Source: Alphaproteobacteria bacterium (lineage in GTDB: Bacteria; Pseudomonadota; Alphaproteobacteria; CACIAM-22H2). Taken from it: DNA of 64,000 nucleotides. The position numbers were made by a program, and so were the translations under genes. The stretch lies in assembly GCA_017308135.1 (NCBI GenBank), contig JAFKFM010000006.1, forward strand, positions 375,724 to 439,723. The letters are read 5' to 3'. This document shows, piece after piece, positions 1 through 44,404 of the stretch (position 1 is its first letter; every line of letters starts with the position of its first letter). The notes beneath the pieces were generated by a model that had not been told where the DNA came from, did not search any database, and worked only from the letters and a program-made list of their open reading frames with translations.

Positions 1-2
1 GC

Positions 3-239
3 GTCCGCCGTGACCGCGACCTTGGCGGATTCGCCGTCGTGCGGTCTGCGTATCCTGGCGGTGCGCCGGGGCGCCGCGGCAAAAGCCGCCGATCCGTGTT
101 GGCGCGCGCAGTTCGTTTTCCATTTGCGCGCGGGCCTTCCGGCGCGGAGCTTTGCGCCATTGACGGACCGTCCGCCCGCAAGATAGAGGACAAAGTGATC
201 CGCATCGTGAATCGTATGCGTCGGCGTGCAATCCAATGA
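3..239 (+). CDS. C-terminal end of an unidentified protein (cut by window edge)
   Basis: An open frame enters from the left edge and stops with a TGA that overlaps the ATG of the next gene by four bases (ATGA), the coupling style used repeatedly in this chromosome. The visible 78 residues are Arg- and Gly-rich, end in a basic tail and show no family motif. A second open frame starting at base 1 and stopping at 189 has somewhat higher third-position GC, so which of the two is translated is uncertain. No function is proposed. Confidence 0.3.
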   Translation, partial: VRRDRDLGGFAVVRSAYPGGAPGRRGKSRRSVLARAVRFPFARGPSGAELCAIDGPSARKIEDKVIRIVNRMRRRAIQ

Positions 240-808
240 TCAGATTCTCGATCTCTGACGCGATTCTCGTTCTCGGCGTGCTGGTGCTCGGCGGTCTTGG
301 TTTCGCTTGGTCCTACGCAAGCGACGGCATCTACACCGACGAGCTTCGCGCGATCGCCGTGCGCGAGACGAGCCGTCCCGCGATCGATCGCGCCGTGTTC
401 GGCGCGTGGCGCGTGACATGCGAAGCGGAGGTGTGCCGCGCGGAAACCGCCGTGGAAGAGCCGAGCGGCGCGGCGACGATGATCGTCCAGGTCGCCGTCA
501 ACGGCGAGCGGCGCGGCGTGTTGATTTCGATCGCGGTGCCGATCGGCATCGACATCGCGCCGGGCGTGCTGCTGCGCACGTCGACCGCCGTCGAGGCGGC
601 GGCGGCGATCCTCGAATGCGCGCCGGCCGGATGCGTCGCGCGCTTCTTCCCCGAAACCTTTCTGATGACGGCTTTGCGCCAGTCCGACGCGCTGACGATC
701 CGCTATCGCCGCGCTTCCGGCGGGCTCGGGCTCGATCCGGTGCCCGACGCGCTGGTCAGTCTCCACGTTCCCATGGCCGGTTTCGTCCAAGCGATCGCGG
801 CGCTGTGA
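236..808 (+). CDS. IalB (invasion-associated locus B) family protein, membrane-anchored
   Basis: This 190-residue protein has an N-terminal hydrophobic segment (about residues 9-27) that anchors or exports it, followed by one IalB-like domain. The family pattern is visible: a W-x-V-x-C at residues 58-62 with a second Cys at 67, a GVLL stretch near 110, a Cys pair at 128 and 133 in the form C-x4-C before an aromatic run, and the closing 'GF.QAIAAL' motif. IalB proteins are periplasmic or envelope proteins, first linked to erythrocyte invasion in Bartonella but widespread in free-living alphaproteobacteria, with unclear biochemistry. Its stop overlaps the start of the polysaccharide ligase gene, suggesting a joint envelope role. 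The family call is fairly secure; the function is not. Confidence 0.7.
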   Translation: MIRFSISDAILVLGVLVLGGLGFAWSYASDGIYTDELRAIAVRETSRPAIDRAVFGAWRVTCEAEVCRAETAVEEPSGAATMIVQVAVNGERRGVLISIAVPIGIDIAPGVLLRTSTAVEAAAAILECAPAGCVARFFPETFLMTALRQSDALTIRYRRASGGLGLDPVPDALVSLHVPMAGFVQAIAAL

Positions 809-2637
809 TGAAGGCGCGCCCGGCCGTCGATGTCGCGTTGGCACTGGCGGCGTTCGTCGCGGTCGGCGGGCACACGCATCAAACTTTCGATCTCAACGTC
901 GTCCAATGGAGCGGCGCGGCATTGCTTCTGATCGCCGCGCTCGCCGCATCGAGCCGATCGAGGGGCGCGGGGATCTCGCGCGCGGATTTACCTCTCTGGA
1001 TGTTAATCGGATACGCGGCGATTTCCCTCTTCTGGTCGCCGGTGCCGCACGTCGGCGCGGCCTTCGTGGTCAAGGCCGCTTTCGTCGGCGGCTTGATTTG
1101 GAGTTTGCGCCTGGTCTTCGAAGCGGGCCGGGAAACCCCGATCTTGATCGGCATCGCCGGCGCTGTGTTGCAGACGTTGCTGCTGAACTATTTTCCGCCG
1201 ACGGCGATCACGATCGGCGGATTTGGCAATCCCAATTTCGTCGTCGAGATGATGGCGATGGTGCTACCGTGGATCGCGGGTTTTGCCTTGCGTCGCGGTC
1301 GAAGCGTGGGCGGGTTCGCGCTGTGGGGATTGTTTTGCATCGCGCTGTGGTTCGCGATCGTCGACACGCCGAGCAAAGTGCCGATCCTGGTACTCGGTGG
1401 GTTGGGCGTTCTAGCGGTCCCGTTCGCGTTGTTGCGCTTGGGCAAGGTCGGAGTCGCCGTTGGCATCGCGGCGTTGACGGCGGTCGCGTGGGCGGCGTCG
1501 TTGCGCGGTTTGGCGTCGTTCACGCGCTCGCTGGGCGAACGCGGCGAGATCTTCCTCAACACCTTGGCGATCGCGCGCGACACCTTTCCGTGGGGCGGCG
1601 GCGCGGGATCGTTCGGCGCGCTTTATCCGCTCTATCAGGAACGCCACCTCGCCAATCTGCCCGAACATTATTTAATTCTACGCCGCGTCCTGATCGGCGC
1701 TGCGCACAACGATTTTTTGCAGGCGGTGGTCGACTATGGCGCGCCGGCGATCGTCGCGCTTTTCGCGGCCGCCGCATTGGCGGCTGCGGCGTTCGTCGCG
1801 AAGCGGTCGGCATGGCGTGGGCCGGCGTTGGTGTCACTCGCGGCCGGGGCTCTGGCGAGCCTCGTCGGTTTTCCGTTTCAGAATCCCGCGACCCTCGTTC
1901 TCGCCGCCCTCGCCGTCGCAGGATTGACCGCGCGGACCGAGCCGAACGCGTGCGTCGCCGCAGGACCTGGATTCGCGGTCGCGCGGTGGGTGGCGGGCTG
2001 TGGCGCAGCGGTCTTCTTCGCTATCTCGGTCTTTAATTTCATGGCGTATTACGATCTGCGGCGTATGGTGATGATGCGCCATCCCGCGCCGGACAGCGCC
2101 TACGCGGCTCATGCGCGCGCCAACCGTCTGGCGCCCTGGGATCCGTTCATCGGCCAGACGCTGTTCGTTACCTATATGTCTTGGGCGACGGCAATCGACC
2201 GCCGCTATTCGGACTATCCCAACGATCGCGTGTCCCGTCTCGCAGATCCGCTGGCGACGGGTCCCGACAATGCGACGATCTACGCGTTGTCGCGCCGCTA
2301 CGCGCCAAACAACTTCAATCTCGGCTACGGACGACTGCAGTATCTATTGAATGCGCGTCTACATCGGACGCACGCGGCGGAAATCGACGCTATTCTCGCC
2401 GAAATCCGCCGCTCGGTTCCGCATCTACCGGAAACGATCGTTCTGTCCGCCTACGCGGCGGGCCTGCGCAACGACCCGGATGCGATGGCGGTCGTGGCAC
2501 GCGACGCGGCGCTTCCCGGCGTGCGCTGGCGACCGGAGATGCGCGCGGCGTACGAAGCACTCGCAGCAGCCCACGCCAGGATCGAGAGTTCCGGCAATCC
2601 CGGCGCCTACGACATTGTCATCCATTTGGAATGGTAA
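808..2637 (+). CDS. O-antigen ligase / polymerase (Wzy_C, WaaL-like) membrane protein
   Basis: The product is 609 residues. About two thirds is a run of hydrophobic segments typical of a polytopic inner-membrane protein (roughly a dozen helices). This is followed by a soluble stretch of about 200 residues (from about 410), rich in Tyr, Arg and Pro, that resembles the helical tails fused to some Wzy_C proteins. A large loop before the last helices fits the periplasmic catalytic loop of O-antigen ligases and polymerases. The ATG at 808 overlaps the previous stop, which fixes the start. Expected role: polymerising or transferring lipid-linked glycan at the periplasmic face. Ligase and polymerase cannot be told apart here. 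The 3' end overlaps the convergent TPR gene by 20 bases. Confidence 0.75.
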   Translation: MKARPAVDVALALAAFVAVGGHTHQTFDLNVVQWSGAALLLIAALAASSRSRGAGISRADLPLWMLIGYAAISLFWSPVPHVGAAFVVKAAFVGGLIWSLRLVFEAGRETPILIGIAGAVLQTLLLNYFPPTAITIGGFGNPNFVVEMMAMVLPWIAGFALRRGRSVGGFALWGLFCIALWFAIVDTPSKVPILVLGGLGVLAVPFALLRLGKVGVAVGIAALTAVAWAASLRGLASFTRSLGERGEIFLNTLAIARDTFPWGGGAGSFGALYPLYQERHLANLPEHYLILRRVLIGAAHNDFLQAVVDYGAPAIVALFAAAALAAAAFVAKRSAWRGPALVSLAAGALASLVGFPFQNPATLVLAALAVAGLTARTEPNACVAAGPGFAVARWVAGCGAAVFFAISVFNFMAYYDLRRMVMMRHPAPDSAYAAHARANRLAPWDPFIGQTLFVTYMSWATAIDRRYSDYPNDRVSRLADPLATGPDNATIYALSRRYAPNNFNLGYGRLQYLLNARLHRTHAAEIDAILAEIRRSVPHLPETIVLSAYAAGLRNDPDAMAVVARDAALPGVRWRPEMRAAYEALAAAHARIESSGNPGAYDIVIHLEW

Positions 2638-4708
2638 ATTGATCGATCGGCGCGCCCCGCGCGACCGCGCTCAATAATGCCGCGATACGATCGTAAACGT
2701 CCCGCCAATCGCGATGTCGCGTCTGGCGCAACAGGCGGACGGATCCGTACCAATGCGTCGTTTCGCCCGTCATCGACCAGCGCCAATCCGGAACAATCGG
2801 CAGGATAAGCCGCGCCGGACGGCCGAGGGCGCCGGCGAGATGCGCGACGCTGGTATCGACGGTAACGACGAGATCGACCAGTTCGCACAATGCGGCCGTA
2901 TCCGCGAAATCGTCGATTTTGGCGGCGAAGTCGCGGATGTTCAATGCTTGGCCGAGAAATGCCCGATCGACCTCGCGCACTTCCTTCTGTAACGAGATAT
3001 AATCGATGCCGTCGGACAACACCGTCGTCAACGTCGCCAAGCGATGGCTGCGATTGGCGTCGTCGGGATGGTCGGTGCTTCCCGACCAGACGAGACCGAC
3101 GCGCGGCCGAATTTTCGGGCCCAGAATGCGCGACCACTTCGCGACGAAAACCGGGTCGGCGCGCAAATAGCCGTCGCGCGCGGGCACGGCGTCGATCCCT
3201 TTCCAGAACATGCGGCCGAGATCGAAGATGGAGACGACATAGTCGAACCGTTCGGCGTTCGCGAGTTCCGCCGTCAACAGCTCCACGCCTTCGATCTGCT
3301 CGAACAGCGAGACCAAAGCCTTCTGCACCAGCAACGTGACCCGTGCGCCGGTCGCCGCAAGGTCCCGGATGTAGCGGACAAATTGTATCGAGTCCCCGAG
3401 CCCCTGCTCGCACGTCACCAACACGGATCGGGCGGCCGCATCCCGCAGATTCGCGGGCGGGCGTGGGCGCAAGGCGCCGACGCCGACCTTGCGCTGCAGA
3501 CGCAGCGTCCGCCAGCGCCAATCATATTCCGGCCAACCACCTTCGTAGTCGCCGCGCAACATCCGGATGACGCCGAGATTGACGTGCGCCAAGGCGTATT
3601 CCGGATCCGCATCGATCGCGTTCTCGTTGCACGTCGCCGCCTCGTCGAAGCGGCCGAGCGCGAACAGCGCGTTCCCTTTGGACGTATGCGCGGCGGCGGA
3701 TCGCGGATTGATCTTCAGCGCGACGTCGAAGCTTCGCAAAGCCGCGTCGGTGTCGCCGACGCCGTGCAGCGCCGCTCCGAGATTGATATGCGGCTCTTCG
3801 CGCTGCGGGCCGAGTTCGATCGCGCGACGGCAATGGGCGACGGCCGCGTCGTAGCGCCGCAGCTGGCAATAGGCGTGGCCGAGATTGCTGTGAAGGTCGG
3901 CGTGATCGGGCCGCAAGCGCAACGCTTCTTCATAGAGGACGGCCCCGTGTTCGGAATAACCTGCTTCCGTCAGAAGATTCGCCAACTCGAACTTCGCGTC
4001 GAAACTGTCGGGATGCGCCGCCAACGCCGCGCGGAATGCCGTTTCCGCGGCGACGGCGTCGCCGGCCCGGCGCGCAGCGCGCCCCATCTCGATTTTAATG
4101 GTGGCAAGATTTTCGATGGCGCTGCGTGCCGCCGGATCGATCGCGAGCGCACGCTCGAAACAAGTTTGGGCGGCGTCCAAACGCCCGGCGAGAAAATGCG
4201 TGCCGCCGAGATTGAGTTGGGCGTCGAAATGTCCCGGGCGAAGCGTCGCGGCGCGCGCGAAATACCCGTGCGCTTCGTCGCCTTTGCCGAGCTGCAAAGC
4301 GGTGTTTCCAGCTTGAAAGGCCAGGTCCGCGTCGCCGGGGTCGATCGCCAGCGCGTCGGTCAGAATACGCAAAGCGTCTTCGGGCCGACCCAACGCCAAT
4401 GCCGCATTGGCGCGATTGCGCAACAGAAACGTCGAACGCGGAAAAATCGTCAGCGCGCGGTCTAGAAACGCCGCCGCTTCGTCGTTGCGTCCGCGGGCGA
4501 CGGCAAGAGACGCGAGATTGTTCAACGCGTCCGCGACATGATCGCCGTCCGAGACGGCACGCATATAATGCGCCGCCGCCGCCTCGAGCAGCCCCGCTTG
4601 ATGCGCGGCAAGTCCGGATTCGAAAGGCGACACTTGGCGCGTTGGTTTTTCGTCGGTCACCGCACCGGCCGTTTCGCATGCAATGGCGTGCGCCTTTCCA
4701 AATCGCAT
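2618..4708 (-). CDS. TPR protein with C-terminal GT9-like glycosyltransferase domain
   Basis: This 696-residue protein begins with about ten tetratricopeptide repeats (about residues 25-400; recurring A-x-x-N-x-G and 'AL..P' spacing). They are followed by a glycosyltransferase-9-like domain (about 410-690) carrying a 'GLGDSIQF' nucleotide-sugar loop and a 'VDTSVAHLAGALG' motif typical of ADP-heptose:LPS heptosyltransferase relatives. Such fusions are common in alphaproteobacteria and are thought to glycosylate proteins or surface glycans; the acceptor is unknown. The ATG at 4708 was chosen because coding character begins there; farther upstream the same frame runs under recX. A GTG at 4660 is an alternative. 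The gene is convergent with the Wzy_C gene, which supports a surface-glycan role. Confidence 0.7.
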   Translation of the reverse strand: MRFGKAHAIACETAGAVTDEKPTRQVSPFESGLAAHQAGLLEAAAAHYMRAVSDGDHVADALNNLASLAVARGRNDEAAAFLDRALTIFPRSTFLLRNRANAALALGRPEDALRILTDALAIDPGDADLAFQAGNTALQLGKGDEAHGYFARAATLRPGHFDAQLNLGGTHFLAGRLDAAQTCFERALAIDPAARSAIENLATIKIEMGRAARRAGDAVAAETAFRAALAAHPDSFDAKFELANLLTEAGYSEHGAVLYEEALRLRPDHADLHSNLGHAYCQLRRYDAAVAHCRRAIELGPQREEPHINLGAALHGVGDTDAALRSFDVALKINPRSAAAHTSKGNALFALGRFDEAATCNENAIDADPEYALAHVNLGVIRMLRGDYEGGWPEYDWRWRTLRLQRKVGVGALRPRPPANLRDAAARSVLVTCEQGLGDSIQFVRYIRDLAATGARVTLLVQKALVSLFEQIEGVELLTAELANAERFDYVVSIFDLGRMFWKGIDAVPARDGYLRADPVFVAKWSRILGPKIRPRVGLVWSGSTDHPDDANRSHRLATLTTVLSDGIDYISLQKEVREVDRAFLGQALNIRDFAAKIDDFADTAALCELVDLVVTVDTSVAHLAGALGRPARLILPIVPDWRWSMTGETTHWYGSVRLLRQTRHRDWRDVYDRIAALLSAVARGAPIDQFTIPNG

Positions 4709-4823
4709 GACTTCGCGAATTGGGCGTTTCGGTGACGGAACCGTTTGATTCCGTACTTGGTGCCTTCGCGATCGCCTAATTTGCAATGCCAAAAGCCGGC
4801 ATATCGGCCGATCCGCTTCGACA

Positions 4824-5360
4824 TCATGGATCCCCCAGCGTTTCCAAATTCGCGTCGACGATGCGGCGCGCAAGTTCGGGCTCGAACCCGGCGCGCGCCA
4901 GGGCCGCGATATCGCGCATGCGGCGCGCTTCGCGCTTGGCCGGATCGCCATAGGCGCCCAAGCGCTTCTTCTTCGCCCAGCGGATCGCGCGCGCGCGATC
5001 GGTGTCGCCTGTTTCGTCCACGGCATCGAGGGCGTGGCCGATTTCGTCCCGGCCGACGCCTTTGATTTGCAGCCGCTGGGCGATGCGCCCGCGCGCGAGG
5101 CCGCGTCTTGCGAGGCTTGCGGCCAAAGCTTCGGCGTAGAGCTTGTCGTTGAGCAGGCCTTTGGCGGCGAGCTTTTCAAGCACTTTTTCGACCGCCGCCG
5201 CGCCCGCGTCGCGCTCGACGATGCCCGCGCGCGCCGCGCGTTCGACTTTGCGCATCAACACACGGCGCACGCCTTCGCGGCTGGCAGCGTAGCGCTCGAG
5301 ATAGGCAAGCGCGCCTTTCTCCAGGCGTTCTTGCGTCGGTGGTTTGGGGATTTTGCGCAT
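4824..5360 (-). CDS. recX: Regulatory protein RecX
   Basis: The 178-residue protein shows the three-helix tandem repeats of RecX: an N-terminal 'AYLERYAASREGVRRVL' helix block, 'LAAKGLLND..YAEALA' in the middle and 'RGLARGRI...L..KG' after it. RecX binds inside the RecA filament groove and limits RecA recombinase and coprotease activity. recA is not in this window. A CGGAGAG ribosome site lies just before the ATG. The gene is unusual in context: the IS607 element ends within about 40 bases of its start codon, so its native promoter has probably been displaced or replaced. Confidence 0.85.
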   Translation of the reverse strand: MRKIPKPPTQERLEKGALAYLERYAASREGVRRVLMRKVERAARAGIVERDAGAAAVEKVLEKLAAKGLLNDKLYAEALAASLARRGLARGRIAQRLQIKGVGRDEIGHALDAVDETGDTDRARAIRWAKKKRLGAYGDPAKREARRMRDIAALARAGFEPELARRIVDANLETLGDP

Positions 5361-5403
5361 GGCAGACCGCTCTCCGGAACCTATACAAACTTACGCATTT
5401 TTT

Positions 5404-6603
5404 TCATGCGGCATGTCTGTTGTCCGATTCCTGCTTCATCGAGGCTCGTTTCACGCGCGGCTTGCGCCGTGCGCCAGAGCGATCCTCTCCACAGGCTGTC
5501 ACCGCGAAGCTCGCGGCCAGTTTCTCCAAATTCCGGGCCGCATTGACGTCCCGGTTCGCTTCGTATCCGCAGCTCTCGCAGCTATAGACGCGTTGCGAGA
5601 GTTCCAGTTCGGCTTTCACCGAGCCGCAGCAAGAACAGGTCTTGCTCGAAGGGTAAAATCTGGCGGCGACGACGATCGTCGCACCGCGCAGGCGTGCCTT
5701 GTACTCGAGCTGCCTCCGAAACTCGAAGAATGACGCGTCCATGATCGACCTGGCAAGATACCGGTTGCGAGTCATGCCGCGCACGTTCAAATCCTCGATT
5801 CCGATGCGTCGATACGTCGCGACAAGTCGCGTCGTGAGCTTGTGTAGCGCATCCTTCCGGATATTCCCGATCCGCGCGTGTAAACGCGCGAGACGCCGCT
5901 TCGCCTTGAGCGCGTTGCACGAACCACGTTTCTTGCGTGCCAAGGCTTTGTTCGCCCGCCGGAGATGGCCGAGTAGATTTTTGTGCGGTTTCGGCCCCTC
6001 GATTTTGGTCCCGTCACTCAACGCTGCAAGATTCGTCACGCCTAGATCGAGGCCAATAGCCGCGATCGGTTGGACTATCGCGGGCACGTCCGGCGCCTCG
6101 AACAGGATCGAAGCGAACCATCGGTCCGCCGTTCTCGAGACGGTAACGCGTTTGGCGACACCTTCGAAGCGCGGAGTCTCGCGCGTACGCACCCAGCCGA
6201 TGACAGGGAGCTTTATCCGCTTGCCGTCGATGCGGAACGTCCCAACCTCGTTCGCAGCACAGAAGCTGTCGCTGACGCCTTTTTTCTTGAACCGCGGATA
6301 GTGCCCACGTTTCTCGAAGAACGACCGAAACGCCGTACCGAGGTCAATAATCGCCTCCTGGGCGGCACATTTGGTGACGTCGAACATCCATGGAAACGTG
6401 GCGCGTTTCACTTCGTTGAGCCGCCGGCGCAGCAGTGCGTCCGTCGGCTGCGGCGAACTCGGGTCGGATTTGCGCGCCTCATACATGCGCCGCCATTCGC
6501 CAAGCGACCAGTTATAGGCGAAGCGAGCCGTGCCAGCTCCTTTGGCAAAATAGGTCCGTTGCTTGTTCGTCGGATCGAGTGCGATACGATGAGCGATCAG
6601 CAT
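5404..6603 (-). CDS. tnpB: TnpB, RNA-guided endonuclease of IS607-family element
   Basis: The product is 399 residues from an ATG at 6603 that overlaps the tnpA stop (TGATG); a TTG one codon upstream is possible. A wedge/REC-like N-terminal half leads into a RuvC nuclease whose three acidic residues are all present: Asp186 in 'GLDLGVTNLA', Glu270 in 'IGIEDLNV' and Asp352 in 'ANRDVNAARN'. A zinc ribbon (Cys323, Cys326, Cys342, Cys345) is inserted before the last Asp. TnpB is the ancestor of Cas12; guided by an omega RNA from the element's right end, it cuts the DNA left empty after transposition and so preserves the element. All parts look functional. The basic tail after residue 370 overlaps the expected omega-RNA region. 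Confidence 0.85.
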   Translation of the reverse strand: MLIAHRIALDPTNKQRTYFAKGAGTARFAYNWSLGEWRRMYEARKSDPSSPQPTDALLRRRLNEVKRATFPWMFDVTKCAAQEAIIDLGTAFRSFFEKRGHYPRFKKKGVSDSFCAANEVGTFRIDGKRIKLPVIGWVRTRETPRFEGVAKRVTVSRTADRWFASILFEAPDVPAIVQPIAAIGLDLGVTNLAALSDGTKIEGPKPHKNLLGHLRRANKALARKKRGSCNALKAKRRLARLHARIGNIRKDALHKLTTRLVATYRRIGIEDLNVRGMTRNRYLARSIMDASFFEFRRQLEYKARLRGATIVVAARFYPSSKTCSCCGSVKAELELSQRVYSCESCGYEANRDVNAARNLEKLAASFAVTACGEDRSGARRKPRVKRASMKQESDNRHAA

Positions 6604-7226
6604 CAAGCCTCCTCGACGACTTTCTTGATGCCATCGATGATCAACTTGTTCTTACGCGAACGGCTGCCGTAGAGCCTCGCGCTGAAGACGGTAATGATCT
6701 CCAAGACGTCTTTCGCGAGATCTTCCTCGAAAGTTGCGTCCTCGCCTCGATTCAAGATAACGACTTCAATGTTCCGCGCTTCGCACAGCGCGAAGATAAG
6801 CTCAGCGCCAAAACGCAGCAGACGATCTTTGTGCGTCAAGACGAGACGCCCGACGCTCTCGTCGAGAATGCCGTCGATGAGTCGCTTCAGCCCCCTCTTT
6901 CGATAGTTCATGCCCGAGCCGAGATCGGCGACAATTTCGTAAGTCCAACCTGCTGCCGCGCAATACATCTCGAGGACTTTCTTTTGCCTTTCAAGATCCT
7001 CTTTCTGGTCGAGTGATGAGACGCGCGCGTAAGCGACAGTCTTGCGATCGGCGACGGCCTCCGCCCGAAAAAGATCGGGACGCAGCTTCGCTAGATCGTA
7101 ACGACGACGACCGCCGGCCGTCTTCTCCGTCGGTACGGCCTTGCCTTCGCGTTCCCAGCGACGAAGCGTCTGCGGCGAGACGCCAAGGGCTTTGGCAGCC
7201 TCTGCGATGGAGACGAACCTGCTCAT
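6603..7226 (-). CDS. tnpA: IS607-family serine recombinase transposase (TnpA)
   Basis: The 207-residue protein has an N-terminal MerR-type helix-turn-helix (about 5-45, 'AAKALGVSPQTLRRWEREG' region with 'GGRRRYD' wing). A compact resolvase-type catalytic domain follows, with the nucleophile serine in 'YARVSSLDQ' (about residue 70), a 'DLGSGMNYRKRGL' loop, and 'LVLTHKDRLLRFG'. IS607 TnpA excises and inserts DNA through a dinucleotide-core serine-recombinase reaction. Its stop overlaps the tnpB start. A promoter-like pair overlaps two 10-base repeats just upstream, which suggests self-regulation. Confidence 0.88.
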   Translation of the reverse strand: MSRFVSIAEAAKALGVSPQTLRRWEREGKAVPTEKTAGGRRRYDLAKLRPDLFRAEAVADRKTVAYARVSSLDQKEDLERQKKVLEMYCAAAGWTYEIVADLGSGMNYRKRGLKRLIDGILDESVGRLVLTHKDRLLRFGAELIFALCEARNIEVVILNRGEDATFEEDLAKDVLEIITVFSARLYGSRSRKNKLIIDGIKKVVEEA

Positions 7227-7232
7227 GATGGC

Positions 7233-7260
7233 AATATATGCGCAAATATGCGCAATTCAA
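7233..7260 (-). promoter_or_regulatory. Putative tnpA promoter overlapping tandem repeats
   Basis: On the minus strand TTGAAT (7260-7255) and TATATT (7238-7233) are 16 bases apart, a plausible -35/-10 pair. The -10 ends six bases before the tnpA ATG, implying a leaderless or nearly leaderless transcript. The spacer is occupied by the two 10-base repeats at 7236-7255, so a protein bound there would block RNA polymerase. Confidence 0.4.
7236..7255. repeat. Perfect 10-base tandem repeat at IS607 left end
   Basis: ATATGCGCAA occurs twice head to tail without a gap (7236-7245 and 7246-7255). A near copy of its core in inverted sense, TTACGCAT, lies at 5391-5398 beyond tnpB. Short repeated subterminal motifs near both ends are what an IS607 transposase would be expected to bind; the binding itself is inferred. 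Confidence 0.65.
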
Positions 7261-7354
7261 GTATCAATTTTTGAAACTCTGTTTGAATTAGGGCTTTACG
7301 GATCGGAAGAGGGGTAGCGCGCGCCTCGCGTCCCGGCCTATTTTCCGCGCCCCG

Positions 7355-8164
7355 ATGACCGAACCTCGCCCCATTCCGCCCGCCCCCCGCGCCTATGGCG
7401 CCGTCAATTGGCTGGGCCTGAAAACGCTCGCCTGGCGCGAGATCCGCCGCTTCATCAAGGTGCATACCCAGACGATCTGGGCGCCCGTGATCACCACGCT
7501 GCTGTTCCTGGCGGTGTTCGCGCTCGCCTTGGGCGGGGCGGTTCAGGAAAAGGGCGGCGTGCCCTTCGTCGAATTTCTGGTGCCGGGCCTGATCATCATG
7601 GCGATGGCGCAAAACGCCTTCGCGAATACCAGCTCGTCGATCATCATTTCGAAGGTCCAAGGCAATATCGTCGACACGCTGATGCCGCCCTTGTCGCCGA
7701 TCGAATTGGTCGTCGGCTTCGCGGCCGGCGGCATCGTGCGCGGCATGGTGGTCGGCGGCGTGGTCGCGATCTGCCTGATCCCGTTAGTGACGATCCATGT
7801 GTCGTCGCCGTTCTGGATCGTGTTTCACGGGCTGATGGCGTCGACGATGCTGGCCCTGCTGGGTATCGCGGGCGGCGTGTGGTCGGAGAAATTCGACCAT
7901 ATCGCGGCGGTGACGAATTTCATCGTCACACCGCTTTCGTTCCTGTCGGGCACGTTCTACACGATCGACCGCCTGCCCGAGGCGTGGCGCATAGCCGCGC
8001 ATTTCAACCCGTTTTTCTACATGATCGACGGGTTCCGCTACGGCTTCATCGGCCATACCGACACGAACCCGCTGCTGGGGGCCGCCGTCATGCTCGGCGT
8101 GAACGCGGCGCTGGCATTGTTGTGCTGGCGGATGTTCGCGCGCGGGTACAAGCTGCGCGCGTGA
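7355..8164 (+). CDS. ABC-2 type transporter permease (YadH-like)
   Basis: The 269-residue protein has six hydrophobic segments in the ABC-2 pattern: 'TLLFLAVFALALG' near 50-62, 'FLVPGLIIMAMAQNAF' near 75-90, and the conserved 'TFYTIDRLPEAWR..AHFNPFFYMIDGFRYGF' region before the last helix. It should export a polar or amphipathic substrate as a dimer with an ATPase subunit. No ATPase gene is next to it; the sequence immediately upstream is the IS607 element, and the pair partner in YadGH-type systems usually sits there. Its TGA overlaps the ATG of the next gene by one base. The substrate is unknown. Confidence 0.8.
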   Translation: MTEPRPIPPAPRAYGAVNWLGLKTLAWREIRRFIKVHTQTIWAPVITTLLFLAVFALALGGAVQEKGGVPFVEFLVPGLIIMAMAQNAFANTSSSIIISKVQGNIVDTLMPPLSPIELVVGFAAGGIVRGMVVGGVVAICLIPLVTIHVSSPFWIVFHGLMASTMLALLGIAGGVWSEKFDHIAAVTNFIVTPLSFLSGTFYTIDRLPEAWRIAAHFNPFFYMIDGFRYGFIGHTDTNPLLGAAVMLGVNAALALLCWRMFARGYKLRA

Positions 8165-8625
8165 TGCGCGCGGCCACACTCGACGAATTGCCGCAATGGC
8201 TGCGCGACCTGCATGCGTTGTGGGTCGCGAAAAAGGGCGCTGCGGCGTTCCCGTCGCGCGCGGCCTTCGTCGTCGAAGATTTCATGCCCTGGATCGGCCG
8301 GCTGCATCTGGTCGAGGTGCTGCCCGGCGGCGATTTCCGCTTCGTCATCTACGGGGCCAGCACCAACGTGCAGATGCGCCGCGAGTATTCGGGCCTGAAA
8401 TTGTCCGAAATCGCCGAGCCGGTCGCCCGGCTATGGGAAGCCGGCTATCGCGACGCGGTCGCCCGGCGCCGGCCGCTTTTCCTGCACCATCCGCTGGCCC
8501 AATACGCCGAGCGCGACGGCAAAACCCAAATGTGGCGTACCATCCTGCCGATGGCCGAGAACGGCGAAATCACCCATTTGCTGGTCGGGTTTCAGGTCAT
8601 CGCCGAGGACGGGCGGTATCTATAA
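8164..8625 (+). CDS. PAS_5-family PAS domain protein
   Basis: This 153-residue protein is essentially one PAS_5-type domain: an initial helix 'LHALWVAKKG', a strand pair 'MPWIGRLHLVEVLP..DFRFVIYG', then 'SGLKLSEI' and a final strand 'GFQVIAEDGRYL'. It has no output domain, no transmembrane part and no obvious cofactor ligand. PAS_5 proteins (Pfam family of short alphaproteobacterial PAS proteins) are of unknown function and probably bind a small ligand or a partner kinase. It starts at an ATG overlapping the permease stop. Two relatives occur at 23255 and 23781. Confidence 0.7.
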   Translation: MRAATLDELPQWLRDLHALWVAKKGAAAFPSRAAFVVEDFMPWIGRLHLVEVLPGGDFRFVIYGASTNVQMRREYSGLKLSEIAEPVARLWEAGYRDAVARRRPLFLHHPLAQYAERDGKTQMWRTILPMAENGEITHLLVGFQVIAEDGRYL

Positions 8626-41283: not shown

Positions 41284-42417
41284 GTCCCACAGCTCCTTCA
41301 CCTTGGCGAAGAAGCCGGCCGATTCGGGCGAATGCGATTTGTCCGCACCACCGGTCCCTTCAAATTCCTTCAGCAGATCCTGCTGACGCTTCGTCAGGTT
41401 CACCGGTGTTTCGACCACCGCTTCGATGAACATGTCGCCGCGCGCGGTGGAACGCAGCACTGACATGCCCTTGCCCTTCAGGCGGAATTGCTGCCCCGTT
41501 TGGGCACCCGCCGGGATCGTGACCTTGGCGCGCCCGCCATCGACCGTCGGCACTTCGACCGAGCCGCCCAGTGCGGCCGTCGTCATCGCGATGGGGACGC
41601 GGCAATAGATGTCCGCGTTCTCGCGATGGAACAGCTTATGCGGCTTGATCTGCAGGAACAGATACAAGTCGCCTTGCGGGGCCCCGCGCATGCCCGCTTC
41701 GCCTTCGCCGGCCAAGCGGATGCGCGTGCCGTCTTCCACACCCGCCGGGATGTTGACGTTGAGCGTGCGTTCCTTGCGCACGCGGCCCTGACCCTGGCAG
41801 GTCTTGCACGGCTTCTCGATGATCTGACCGCCGCCGCCGCATTGCGGGCAGGTGCGTTCGATCGTGAAGAAGCCTTGCTGGGCGCGCACCTTGCCGTGAC
41901 CGCGACAGGTCGGGCAGGTGACGGGCTTCGAGCCCGCTTCCGCACCGGTCCCTTTGCAGGTCTCGCAGGAATGCAGCGACGCGACTTTGACGGTCGCTTG
42001 CTTGCCGTGGAATGCGTCTTCCAGGCTGATTTCGAGATTGTAGCGCAGATCGGAGCCGCGCTGCGGCCCGCCACCGCGCCGGCCGCCGCCCATGAACTCG
42101 CCGAACATCTCGTCGAAGATGTCCGCGAACCCGGCATTGCCGCCGCCGAAATCGAAACCGCCGGCGCGATTGCCCGCACCGCCGCCGCCCTGCTCGAAGG
42201 CGGCATGACCGAAGCGATCATAGGCCGCACGCTTCTGCTCGTCCTTCAGGACGTCATAGGCCTCGTTGATCTGCTTGAACTTGGCTTCGGCTTTCTTGTC
42301 GCCCGGATTCTTGTCCGGGTGATACTGCATGGCGAGCTTGCGATAGGCCTTCTTGAGTTCGTCTTGCGACGCCCCCTTGGCCACGCCCAGCAGCTCGTAA
42401 AAATCTTCCTTCGCCAC
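41269..42417 (-). CDS. dnaJ: Chaperone DnaJ
   Basis: The 382-residue type I J-protein has the J domain with His-Pro-Asp at '[11 protein letters not shown]', a Gly/Phe-rich stretch (about 75-115), four CxxCxGxG zinc repeats ('CETCKGTG', 'CPTCRGHG', 'CPQCGGGG', 'CKTCQGQG') and the C-terminal substrate domains. It delivers clients to DnaK and stimulates its ATPase. It lies 55 bases after dnaK, separated by a strong hairpin. Confidence 0.97.
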
Positions 42418-42436
42418 GGCCGACTCCGTCGAGCGT

Positions 42437-42464
42437 CAGGCGGGCGCCCGGAAAGGCGCCCGCC
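42437..42464 (-). terminator. 11-base perfect hairpin between dnaK and dnaJ
   Basis: AGGCGGGCGCC (42437-42447) and GGCGCCCGCCT (42454-42464) pair around a six-base loop in the dnaK-dnaJ gap. There is only a two-base T run after it on the minus strand, so partial termination or protection of the dnaK mRNA end is more likely than a full stop. Either would lower DnaJ relative to DnaK. Confidence 0.55.
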
Positions 42465-42472
42465 TTCTAAGC

Positions 42473-44404
42473 TCAGTTCTTCTTGTTCTTGTCGGACACG
42501 TCTTCGAACGTCGCGTCGACGACCTTTTCGTCCTTCGGCGCGTCGCCCTTGGGCGCTTCGGCCGACGGACCGGCATCGGCGCCGCCCGCGGCGGCTTCGG
42601 CCTGCGACGCCTTGTACATGGCTTCGCCCAGCTTCATCGACGCTTGGGTCAGCGCGTCGGTCTTGGCCTTGATCGCCTCGACGTCGTCGCCGTCCTTGAC
42701 GCCCTTCAGGTCGGCGATGGCTTGCTCGATCACGGCCTTATCGGCCCCGATCTTGTCGCCATGCTCCTTCAGGTTCTTTTCGACGTCGTGGATCATGCCT
42801 TCGGCGCGGTTCTTCGCCTCGACCAGATCGCGGCGCTTCTTGTCCTCGGCGGCGTTCGCCTCGGCGTCCTTCACCATCTTCTGGATTTCGGCGTCGGACA
42901 GGCCGCCCGAGGCTTGGATGCGGATCTGCTGCTCCTTGCCCGTGCCCTTATCCTTGGCCGAAACCTGGACGATGCCGTTGGCGTCGATGTCGAACGTCAC
43001 TTCGATCTGCGGCACGCCGCGCGGGGCGGGCGGCAGACCGACGAGGTCGAACTGGCCGAGCATCTTGTTGTCGGCGGCCATCTCGCGCTCGCCCTGGAAG
43101 ACGCGGATCGTCACGGCCGATTGCGAATCCTCGGCCGTCGAGAAGACCTGCGACTTGCGGGTCGGGATCGTGGTGTTGCGGTCGATCAGGCGCGTGAACA
43201 CGCCGCCGAGCGTTTCGATGCCCAGCGACAGCGGCGTCACGTCGAGCAACAGCACGTCCTTGACGTCGCCCTTCAACACGCCGGCCTGAATGGCGGCACC
43301 GATCGCGACCACTTCGTCGGGGTTGACGCCGCGATGCGGCTCGCGCCCGAAGAACTGCTTCACGGTCTCGATGACCTTGGGCATGCGCGTCATGCCGCCG
43401 ACCAGCACGACCTCGTCGATTTCGCTGGCCTTGAGGCCGGCGTCCTTGAGGGCCGCACGGCACGGCTCGATCGTGCGCTGGATCAGCGCATCGACCAGGC
43501 TTTCGAGCTTGGCGCGCGTCAGCTTGATGTTGAGATGCTTCGGGCCCGAGGCGTCCGCCGTGATGAAGGGCAGGTTCACTTCGGTCTGCACCGCCGACGA
43601 CAGCTCGATCTTCGCCTTCTCGGCGGCTTCCTTCAGCCGCTGCAAGGCAAGCTTGTCGGCGCGCAGGTCGATGCCCTGCTCCTTTTTGAACTCGGCCGCC
43701 AGATAGGTGATGATCTCGTTGTCGAAATCTTCGCCGCCCAGGAACGTGTCGCCGTTCGTGGACTTCACTTCGAACACGCCGTCGCCGATTTCCAGCACCG
43801 ACACGTCGAACGTGCCGCCGCCCAAATCGTAGACCGCGATCGTGCCGGCCTTCTTCTTCTCAAGGCCATAGGCCAACGCGGCCGCCGTCGGCTCGTTGAT
43901 GATGCGCAGAACTTCGAGACCCGCGATCTTGCCGGCGTCCTTCGTGGCTTGGCGCTGGGAGTCGTTGAAATAGGCGGGGACGGTGATCACGGCTTGCGTG
44001 ACCGTTTCGCCCAGATACGCCTCGGCCGTCTCCTTCATCTTCATCAGCGTGAAGGCGGAGATCTGCGAGGGCGAATACTTCTTGCCCTTCGAATCGACCC
44101 ACGCGTCGCCGTTGTCGGCCTTGACGATCTTGTAGGGCACGAGGCCCACATCCTTCGAGACCATCGGGTCTTCGAAGCGGCGGCCGATCAGACGCTTGAT
44201 CGCGTAGAACGTGTCCGAAGGATTGGTGACCGCCTGGCGCTTGGCGGGCTGGCCGACCAGACGCTCGCCGGAATCGGCGAAGGCGACGATCGACGGCGTG
44301 GTGTTCGCCCCCTCGGCGTTGGGGATGACCTTCGGCGTGCTGCCTTCCATCACGGCGACGCAGGAATTGGTCGTGCCGAGGTCGATGCCGATAACTTTGC
44401 TCAT
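42473..44404 (-). CDS. dnaK: Chaperone DnaK (Hsp70)
   Basis: The 643-residue protein begins '[18 protein letters not shown]', has the ATPase phosphate loops ('[17 protein letters not shown]', '[13 protein letters not shown]'), the linker '[13 protein letters not shown]' and a lid with a negatively charged C-terminal tail ('[11 protein letters not shown]'). It is the main ATP-dependent Hsp70. The ATG at 44404 gives the canonical N-terminus; the frame is open to 44605 but upstream is leader. A sigma-32-like promoter lies about 170 bases upstream. GrpE is encoded nearby at 45814. Confidence 0.98.

What the first reader, a model, noticed from the sequence alone, without database searches (positions are those of the whole stretch)
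5361..7310. Apparently intact IS607-TnpB element with a guide that would target the recX upstream region
TnpB has Asp186, Glu270 and Asp352 plus four zinc Cys, and TnpA has its serine motif. The omega RNA should run through the tnpB 3' end and end with a guide copied from the flanking DNA, here the short stretch before recX. The element may therefore be an active RNA-guided nuclease, with a guide that fits the empty recX site.
Basis: partly seen in the sequence, partly recalled or inferred. Interest (0 to 1): 0.6.

Follow-up and report, generated by a model that had tools for sequence, protein, structure and literature searches.

The report
IS607 TnpB element beside recX
A small bacterial jumping gene sits six bases upstream of the start codon of recX and encodes an apparently intact RNA-guided DNA cutter whose built-in guide matches recX copies lacking the jumping gene; this is a well-formed new member of a known kind, although its ability to jump looks impaired.

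Summary
A complete IS607 element lies at 5367-7278 (minus strand: tnpA, tnpB, right end), six bases before the recX ATG. It is the only copy in its genome. A same-genus genome (G001) has the uninterrupted site, which fixes both ends; related copies give the same boundaries: a GG crossover, and GGG on the left-flank side (the inferred TAM). A covariance model trained without the window or its three nearest relatives finds the omega RNA at exactly 5367-5520 (144 bits, E 2.5e-34), with strong covariation. The guide, TCTGCCATGCGCAAAATCCC (5366 to 5347), covers the recX start codon, not only upstream DNA, and matches G001's empty site 19/20 next to AAGGG. ISXfa1 already shows this design (PMC10711439), so this is a known kind. 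'Intact' needs qualifying: the left crossover is AG where the sister genome has GG, and TnpA has Leu where near relatives have His. Excision is probably impaired, while TnpB, RNA and guide look sound. The element is shared with one near-equidistant species inside a 3.4-kb tract of ~98.7% identity (background ~93%), so this allele spread by homologous recombination. Whether TnpB drove that spread is unproven.

The parts
5347..5366 (-). Guide: TCTGCCATGCGCAAAATCCC, host DNA; contains the recX ATG (5360-5358)
   Evidence: First 20 nt after the RE crossover GG; 20 nt is the optimum length for ISFba1 TnpB (PMC11061315). Only perfect match in own genome; 19/20 in the G001 empty site.
5367..5368 (-). 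Right crossover dinucleotide GG (attR), preceded by C (CGG)
   Evidence: RE copies found by the motif search end in CGG, flanks differ beyond; G001 empty site
5367..5520 (-). Omega RNA (reRNA) scaffold, 154 nt, of which 117 nt lie inside the tnpB ORF
   Evidence: Covariance model trained without window/G009/L033/L039 hits exactly here, 144.4 bits, E 2.5e-34, sole hit in window and own genome; covariation
5404..6606 (-). tnpB: RNA-guided nuclease, 400 aa from TTG (399 from ATG); RuvC D187/E271/D353, Zn Cys 324/327/343/346
   Evidence: Pfam PF01385/PF07282/PF12323; NCBIfam NF040570 323 bits; ISDra2 TnpB structure hit E 3e-60; alignment; dN/dS about 0.11 against G009
6603..7226 (-). tnpA: IS607 serine transposase, 207 aa, MerR-type HTH plus resolvase domain, Ser70; unusual Leu72
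   Evidence: Pfam PF00376/PF00239; NF033518 205 bits over cut-off 110; alignment
7277..7278 (-). Left crossover dinucleotide (attL): AG in the window, GG in G009 and the other aligned proteobacterial-type copies
   Evidence: LE alignment; sister allele in L040/L055
4824..5360 (-). recX, start codon 6 nt beyond the element; its first 45 codons lie in the recombination tract
   Evidence: PF02631, RecX NCBIfam hits; synteny in congeners
7355..8164 (+). ABC-2 permease gene on the other flank, divergent from recX
   Evidence: PF01061 E 6e-34; conserved beside recX in congeners
5226..8612 (.). Tract of 98.5-98.9% identity to G009 containing the element, in about 93% background

Best explanation
This is an ISXfa1-type IS607 insertion sequence. 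Inferred mechanism: the tnpA-tnpB transcript runs out of the right end into recX, and TnpB binds its 3' part (about 154 nt scaffold plus about 20 nt of flanking host sequence) as an omega RNA. The RNP cuts double-stranded DNA that has GGG followed by the recX 5' sequence. That is the empty recX site, whether restored by excision or carried by an incoming allele. It spares the occupied locus, where the base before GG is C (CGG). Repair from the element-bearing copy restores or installs the element. Shown by sequence: ends, crossover, RNA structure, guide, intact catalytic residues, a near-perfect empty target in G001, and movement of this allele between species within a recombination tract. Inferred: expression, cleavage, TAM requirement, and repair. 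In this copy the attL crossover changed from GG to AG and TnpA carries Leu72, so excision is probably impaired; the copy may now act only against empty alleles.
For: Protein families and residues. Empty site in G001 and ancestral CAAACAGG flank in other congeners. Boundaries from other copies, including four identical copies at four sites in G162. Omega RNA. Own-genome target search: only the element's own flank, plus one site with 2 mismatches and a non-GGG neighbour. Literature: ISXfa1 TAM GGG, GG crossover, ~150-nt reRNA past the transposon end (PMC10711439); IS607 prefers (G)GG targets and a GG overlap (PMC6188088); IS607 TnpBs are RNA-guided nucleases (PMC11061315). TnpB under purifying selection since divergence from G009: 9 synonymous, 3 nonsynonymous.
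Against: No expression or cleavage data. attL crossover AG and TnpA Leu72 suggest transposition is decaying, so TnpB may follow. Position 72 also varies (S/N) in solved IS607 TnpAs, so Leu72 alone is weak evidence. The G009 copy is split over two contigs with 64 bp missing. The TAM is inferred from left flanks, not assayed.
Confidence: 0.85

Rival explanations
1. Inactive remnant: the element no longer moves (mutated attL, altered TnpA) and TnpB is on its way to decay, not functional.
For: attL AG against GG in the other proteobacterial-type copies; TnpA H72L.
Against: All TnpB invariant catalytic and zinc residues kept; the window deviates at 2 of 121 columns invariant in the other TnpBs, like functional-looking relatives; TnpB 3 nonsynonymous to 9 synonymous changes against G009, binomial P 4e-4; omega RNA scores as well as its relatives.
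Confidence: 0.15
2. Host-adopted regulator: the TnpB-omega RNA binds or competes at the recX 5' end and controls recX, as TldR regulators do for other genes.
For: The guide spans the recX start codon and the element replaced the recX Shine-Dalgarno region; tnpB and recX are co-directional.
Against: RuvC triad intact, unlike nuclease-dead TldR. The occupied site lacks GGG (it is CGG), so the RNP should not bind its own locus. Start-codon guides are not enriched among 49 copies.
Confidence: 0.07
3. The shared recX insertion in G000 and G009 reflects inheritance from their common ancestor rather than lateral spread.
For: Same site, same flanks.
Against: Element and near flanks are 98.5-98.9% identical, background about 93%; sharp edges at about 5226 and 8612; synonymous difference 0.03-0.05 inside and 0.26 just outside in recX.
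Confidence: 0.1

Closest known systems
ISXfa1 (Xylella fastidiosa IS607) TnpB and reRNA, PMC10711439
   Same: Serine TnpA plus TnpB, GG crossover, GGG TAM, reRNA of about 150 nt running past the right end, crossover nucleotides in the scaffold
   Different: Sequence identity to ISXfa1 itself not measured here; this copy has a mutated attL and a recX guide; activity not assayed
ISFba1 and other RAGATH-18 IS607 TnpBs (Ren et al. 2024, PMC11061315)
   Same: IS607 TnpA-TnpB and guide RNA at the right end, 20-nt guide, D/E/D RuvC
   Different: RAGATH-18 motif not present in this group: one sub-threshold hit in the window, none in 10 close relatives; their RNA starts downstream of tnpB and their TAM is AGGAG or GAGGG
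ISDra2 TnpB (IS200/IS605), solved structures 8bf8/8exa/8h1j
   Same: TnpB fold and active site, E 3e-60
   Different: Y1 transposase and different end chemistry; here the transposase is a serine recombinase

Membership tests
IS607 insertion sequence | TnpA serine recombinase with N-terminal MerR-like HTH | tested here: met
   PF00376 + PF00239, NF033518 205 bits, cut-off 110, Ser70
IS607 insertion sequence | Insertion by GG crossover, no target duplication | tested here: met
   Empty site in G001 and copies at different sites; in this copy attL is secondarily AG
TnpB RNA-guided nuclease (OMEGA) | RuvC D/E/D triad and zinc ribbon | tested here: met
   NF040570 323 bits, cut-off 100
TnpB RNA-guided nuclease (OMEGA) | Structured guide RNA ending at the element's right end | tested here: met
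TnpB RNA-guided nuclease (OMEGA) | RNA-guided DNA cleavage | not testable with these tools
   needs biochemistry
ISXfa1-type TnpB | GGG next to the target on the empty site | tested here: met
   GGG at left flanks of the proteobacterial-type copies whose left end aligns (one, L057, has no clear GGG) and in G001; functional TAM not assayed
RAGATH-18 reRNA clade | RAGATH-18 motif in the reRNA | tested here: not met
   29.3 bits against gathering 44.9 in the window, no hit in 10 close relatives
IS200/IS605 | Y1 (HUH) TnpA | tested here: not met
   TnpA is a serine recombinase
TldR (nuclease-dead TnpB regulator) | Loss of RuvC catalytic residues | tested here: not met
   Triad intact

The most novel reading that the evidence does not exclude
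An IS607 copy that can no longer excise survives and spreads purely as an allele: its TnpB, guided to the recX start, cuts element-free recX alleles of related species during DNA transfer, and recombination installs the element with its flanks, as a homing endonuclease gene would. In the resident genome the recX mRNA leader is at the same time the guide RNA, so guide maturation and recX translation compete.
Probability: 0.15. Interest if true: 0.6.

Novelty: new member of a known kind. Interest (0 to 1): 0.33.

Why it matters
It is a clean natural example of an IS607 TnpB with both ends, crossover, guide RNA and empty target fixed by comparison. Sister genomes carry the filled site and the empty, cuttable site, so allelic homing by a chromosomal TnpB could be tested directly with natural sequences.

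Tried and rejected
RAGATH-18 Rfam hit at 5428-5495: sub-threshold and absent from 10 close relatives, so taken as chance. Idea that the GGG target steers these elements into ribosome-binding sites, so that guides usually carry start codons: among 49 distinct copies, ATG in guide positions 1-14 occurs in 14 (7-15 in later 14-nt bins), and ATG opening 60 or more codons in 6 (2-7 elsewhere); not supported. Seven viral contigs matching a short right-end pattern (L083-L089) carry no TnpB and are chance matches. Second copies or decoupled guide RNAs in the own genome: none. Phage records: no match to the RNA region. TnpA Leu72 as proof of inactivation: rejected, because solved IS607 TnpAs have S or N there. 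Using the recombination tract as proof of homing: rejected, because any recombination that transfers an insertion leaves such a tract.

Full report
What is there. On the minus strand, tnpA (7226-6603) and tnpB (6606-5404) overlap by four bases and are followed by a 37-nt right end; recX starts six bases beyond. TnpA is a MerR-HTH plus serine-recombinase protein and an IS607-family transposase above NCBI's cut-off. TnpB carries the HTH, OrfB/RuvC and TNB (zinc) domains. The element is the only copy in its 5.2-Mb genome.

Ends. The recX-permease neighbourhood is conserved in the genus. Genome G001 has it without the element on one contig: CCGTAAAGCCCTATGGCACGAAGGGTCTGCCATGCGC (RNA-strand orientation). 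The window reads CCGTAAAGCCCTAATTCAAACAG-AG-TTTCAAAAATTG...TTCCGGAGAGC-GG-TCTGCCATGCGC. Congeners without the element have CAAACAGG just upstream of recX (L006, L011, L012), so the left flank is ancestral chromosome. Other copies of the same element, including four identical ones at four sites in genome G162, end in CGG on the right. Copies of the proteobacterial type whose left end aligns begin after GGG on the left; the diverged L057 has no clear GGG. The crossover is therefore GG: 5367-5368 on the right, 7277-7278 on the left. The left GG is AG in the window and GG in the sister allele of G009.

Guide RNA. The last 117 nt of tnpB plus the 37-nt right end are conserved as RNA. On 23 sequences a five-helix structure keeps 95% of cells paired. 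Eighteen of 30 pairs show changes on both sides, and the covariation score is 0.51 against 0.17 for shuffles and at most 0.08 for slid partners. A covariance model built from 16 sequences, leaving out the window and its three nearest relatives, finds 5367-5520 at 144 bits as the sole hit in the window. It ends exactly at the crossover. In 25 genomes the strong hits are only this copy, G009's and two in G010. The guide is therefore 5366 to about 5347. In the own genome only its own flank matches perfectly; one other site has two mismatches and lacks GGG. In G001 the target matches at 19 of 20 positions (mismatch at position 18) beside AAGGG.

How it works. ISXfa1 TnpB, an IS607 enzyme, has a GGG TAM, a GG crossover and a reRNA running past the right end, with the crossover nucleotide in the scaffold (PMC10711439). 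IS607 TnpA prefers (G)GG targets, and its GG ends fit exchange over an identical 2-bp overlap as in other serine recombinases (PMC6188088). Many IS607 TnpBs cut DNA with a 20-nt guide (PMC11061315). By this precedent TnpB here should cut empty recX sites (GGG+guide) and spare the occupied one (CGG+guide). This is inferred; no assay was possible.

State of this copy. TnpB differs from G009's by 3 nonsynonymous and 9 synonymous changes over 378 comparable codons, a sign of purifying selection. TnpA has Leu72 two residues after the catalytic serine where its nine nearest relatives have His; solved IS607 TnpAs have S or N there, so the effect is uncertain. The attL AG against attR GG mismatch is the stronger reason to expect failed excision.

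Spread. G000, G009 and G001 are about equally distant in this region (91-94%). From about 5226 to 8612 G000 and G009 are 98.5-98.9% identical, with sharp edges. Synonymous difference in recX jumps from 0.03 to 0.26 at codon 46. Under 1% of other windows of the same length reach the right-flank identity, though several other 1-kb bins are about 98%. The element allele therefore moved between these lineages by homologous recombination after they split. TnpB-driven homing would leave this footprint, but so would ordinary recombination.

Consequences for recX. The insertion sits in recX's probable Shine-Dalgarno region. The element end supplies GGAG 11 nt before the ATG, and recX is co-directional with tnpB. 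Its mRNA leader would thus be the guide RNA; competition between the two is possible but untested. Start codons in guides are not a general feature of these elements.

Verdict. Observation confirmed with corrected ends; interpretation supported; a known kind of system. The added points are the mutated left crossover, the exact guide over the recX start codon, and the lateral spread of the allele.

Noticed in passing
window 1-4835, extending about 10.7 kb left of the window (G000:C6 about 364,988-380,558): A segment of about 15.5 kb joined to the 3' end of recX is absent from G009 and G001, which are contiguous there (about 15-30 bp between). It encodes TPR proteins, an autotransporter, an IalB-like protein and an O-antigen-ligase-like protein; no tRNA was found at its edges.
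   Followed up: partly
G000:C6 about -27,000 to -22,000 and -15,000 to -13,000 relative to the window; window 42,000-43,000: Other 1-kb bins of about 98% identity between G000 and G009 in about 93% background, suggesting further recombination tracts or very conserved genes.
   Followed up: no
L058, L063, L065, L066 (genome G162): Four identical copies of a related IS607-TnpB element at four chromosomal sites, so recently active; near-identical element on Candidatus Bealeia plasmid pBealeia3 (L078).
   Followed up: partly
L003/L040 (G009 contigs C20 and C33): Both contigs end inside tnpB with about 64 bp missing between them; assembly gap or a further insertion in the G009 copy cannot be told apart.
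   Followed up: no
L042, L043, L036, L045 (G010, G009, G004): A second, more distant TnpB lineage (32-35% identity) with a different right end occurs in the same genus; weak hits of the guide-RNA model lie at the tnpB 3' ends of two of these copies.
   Followed up: no
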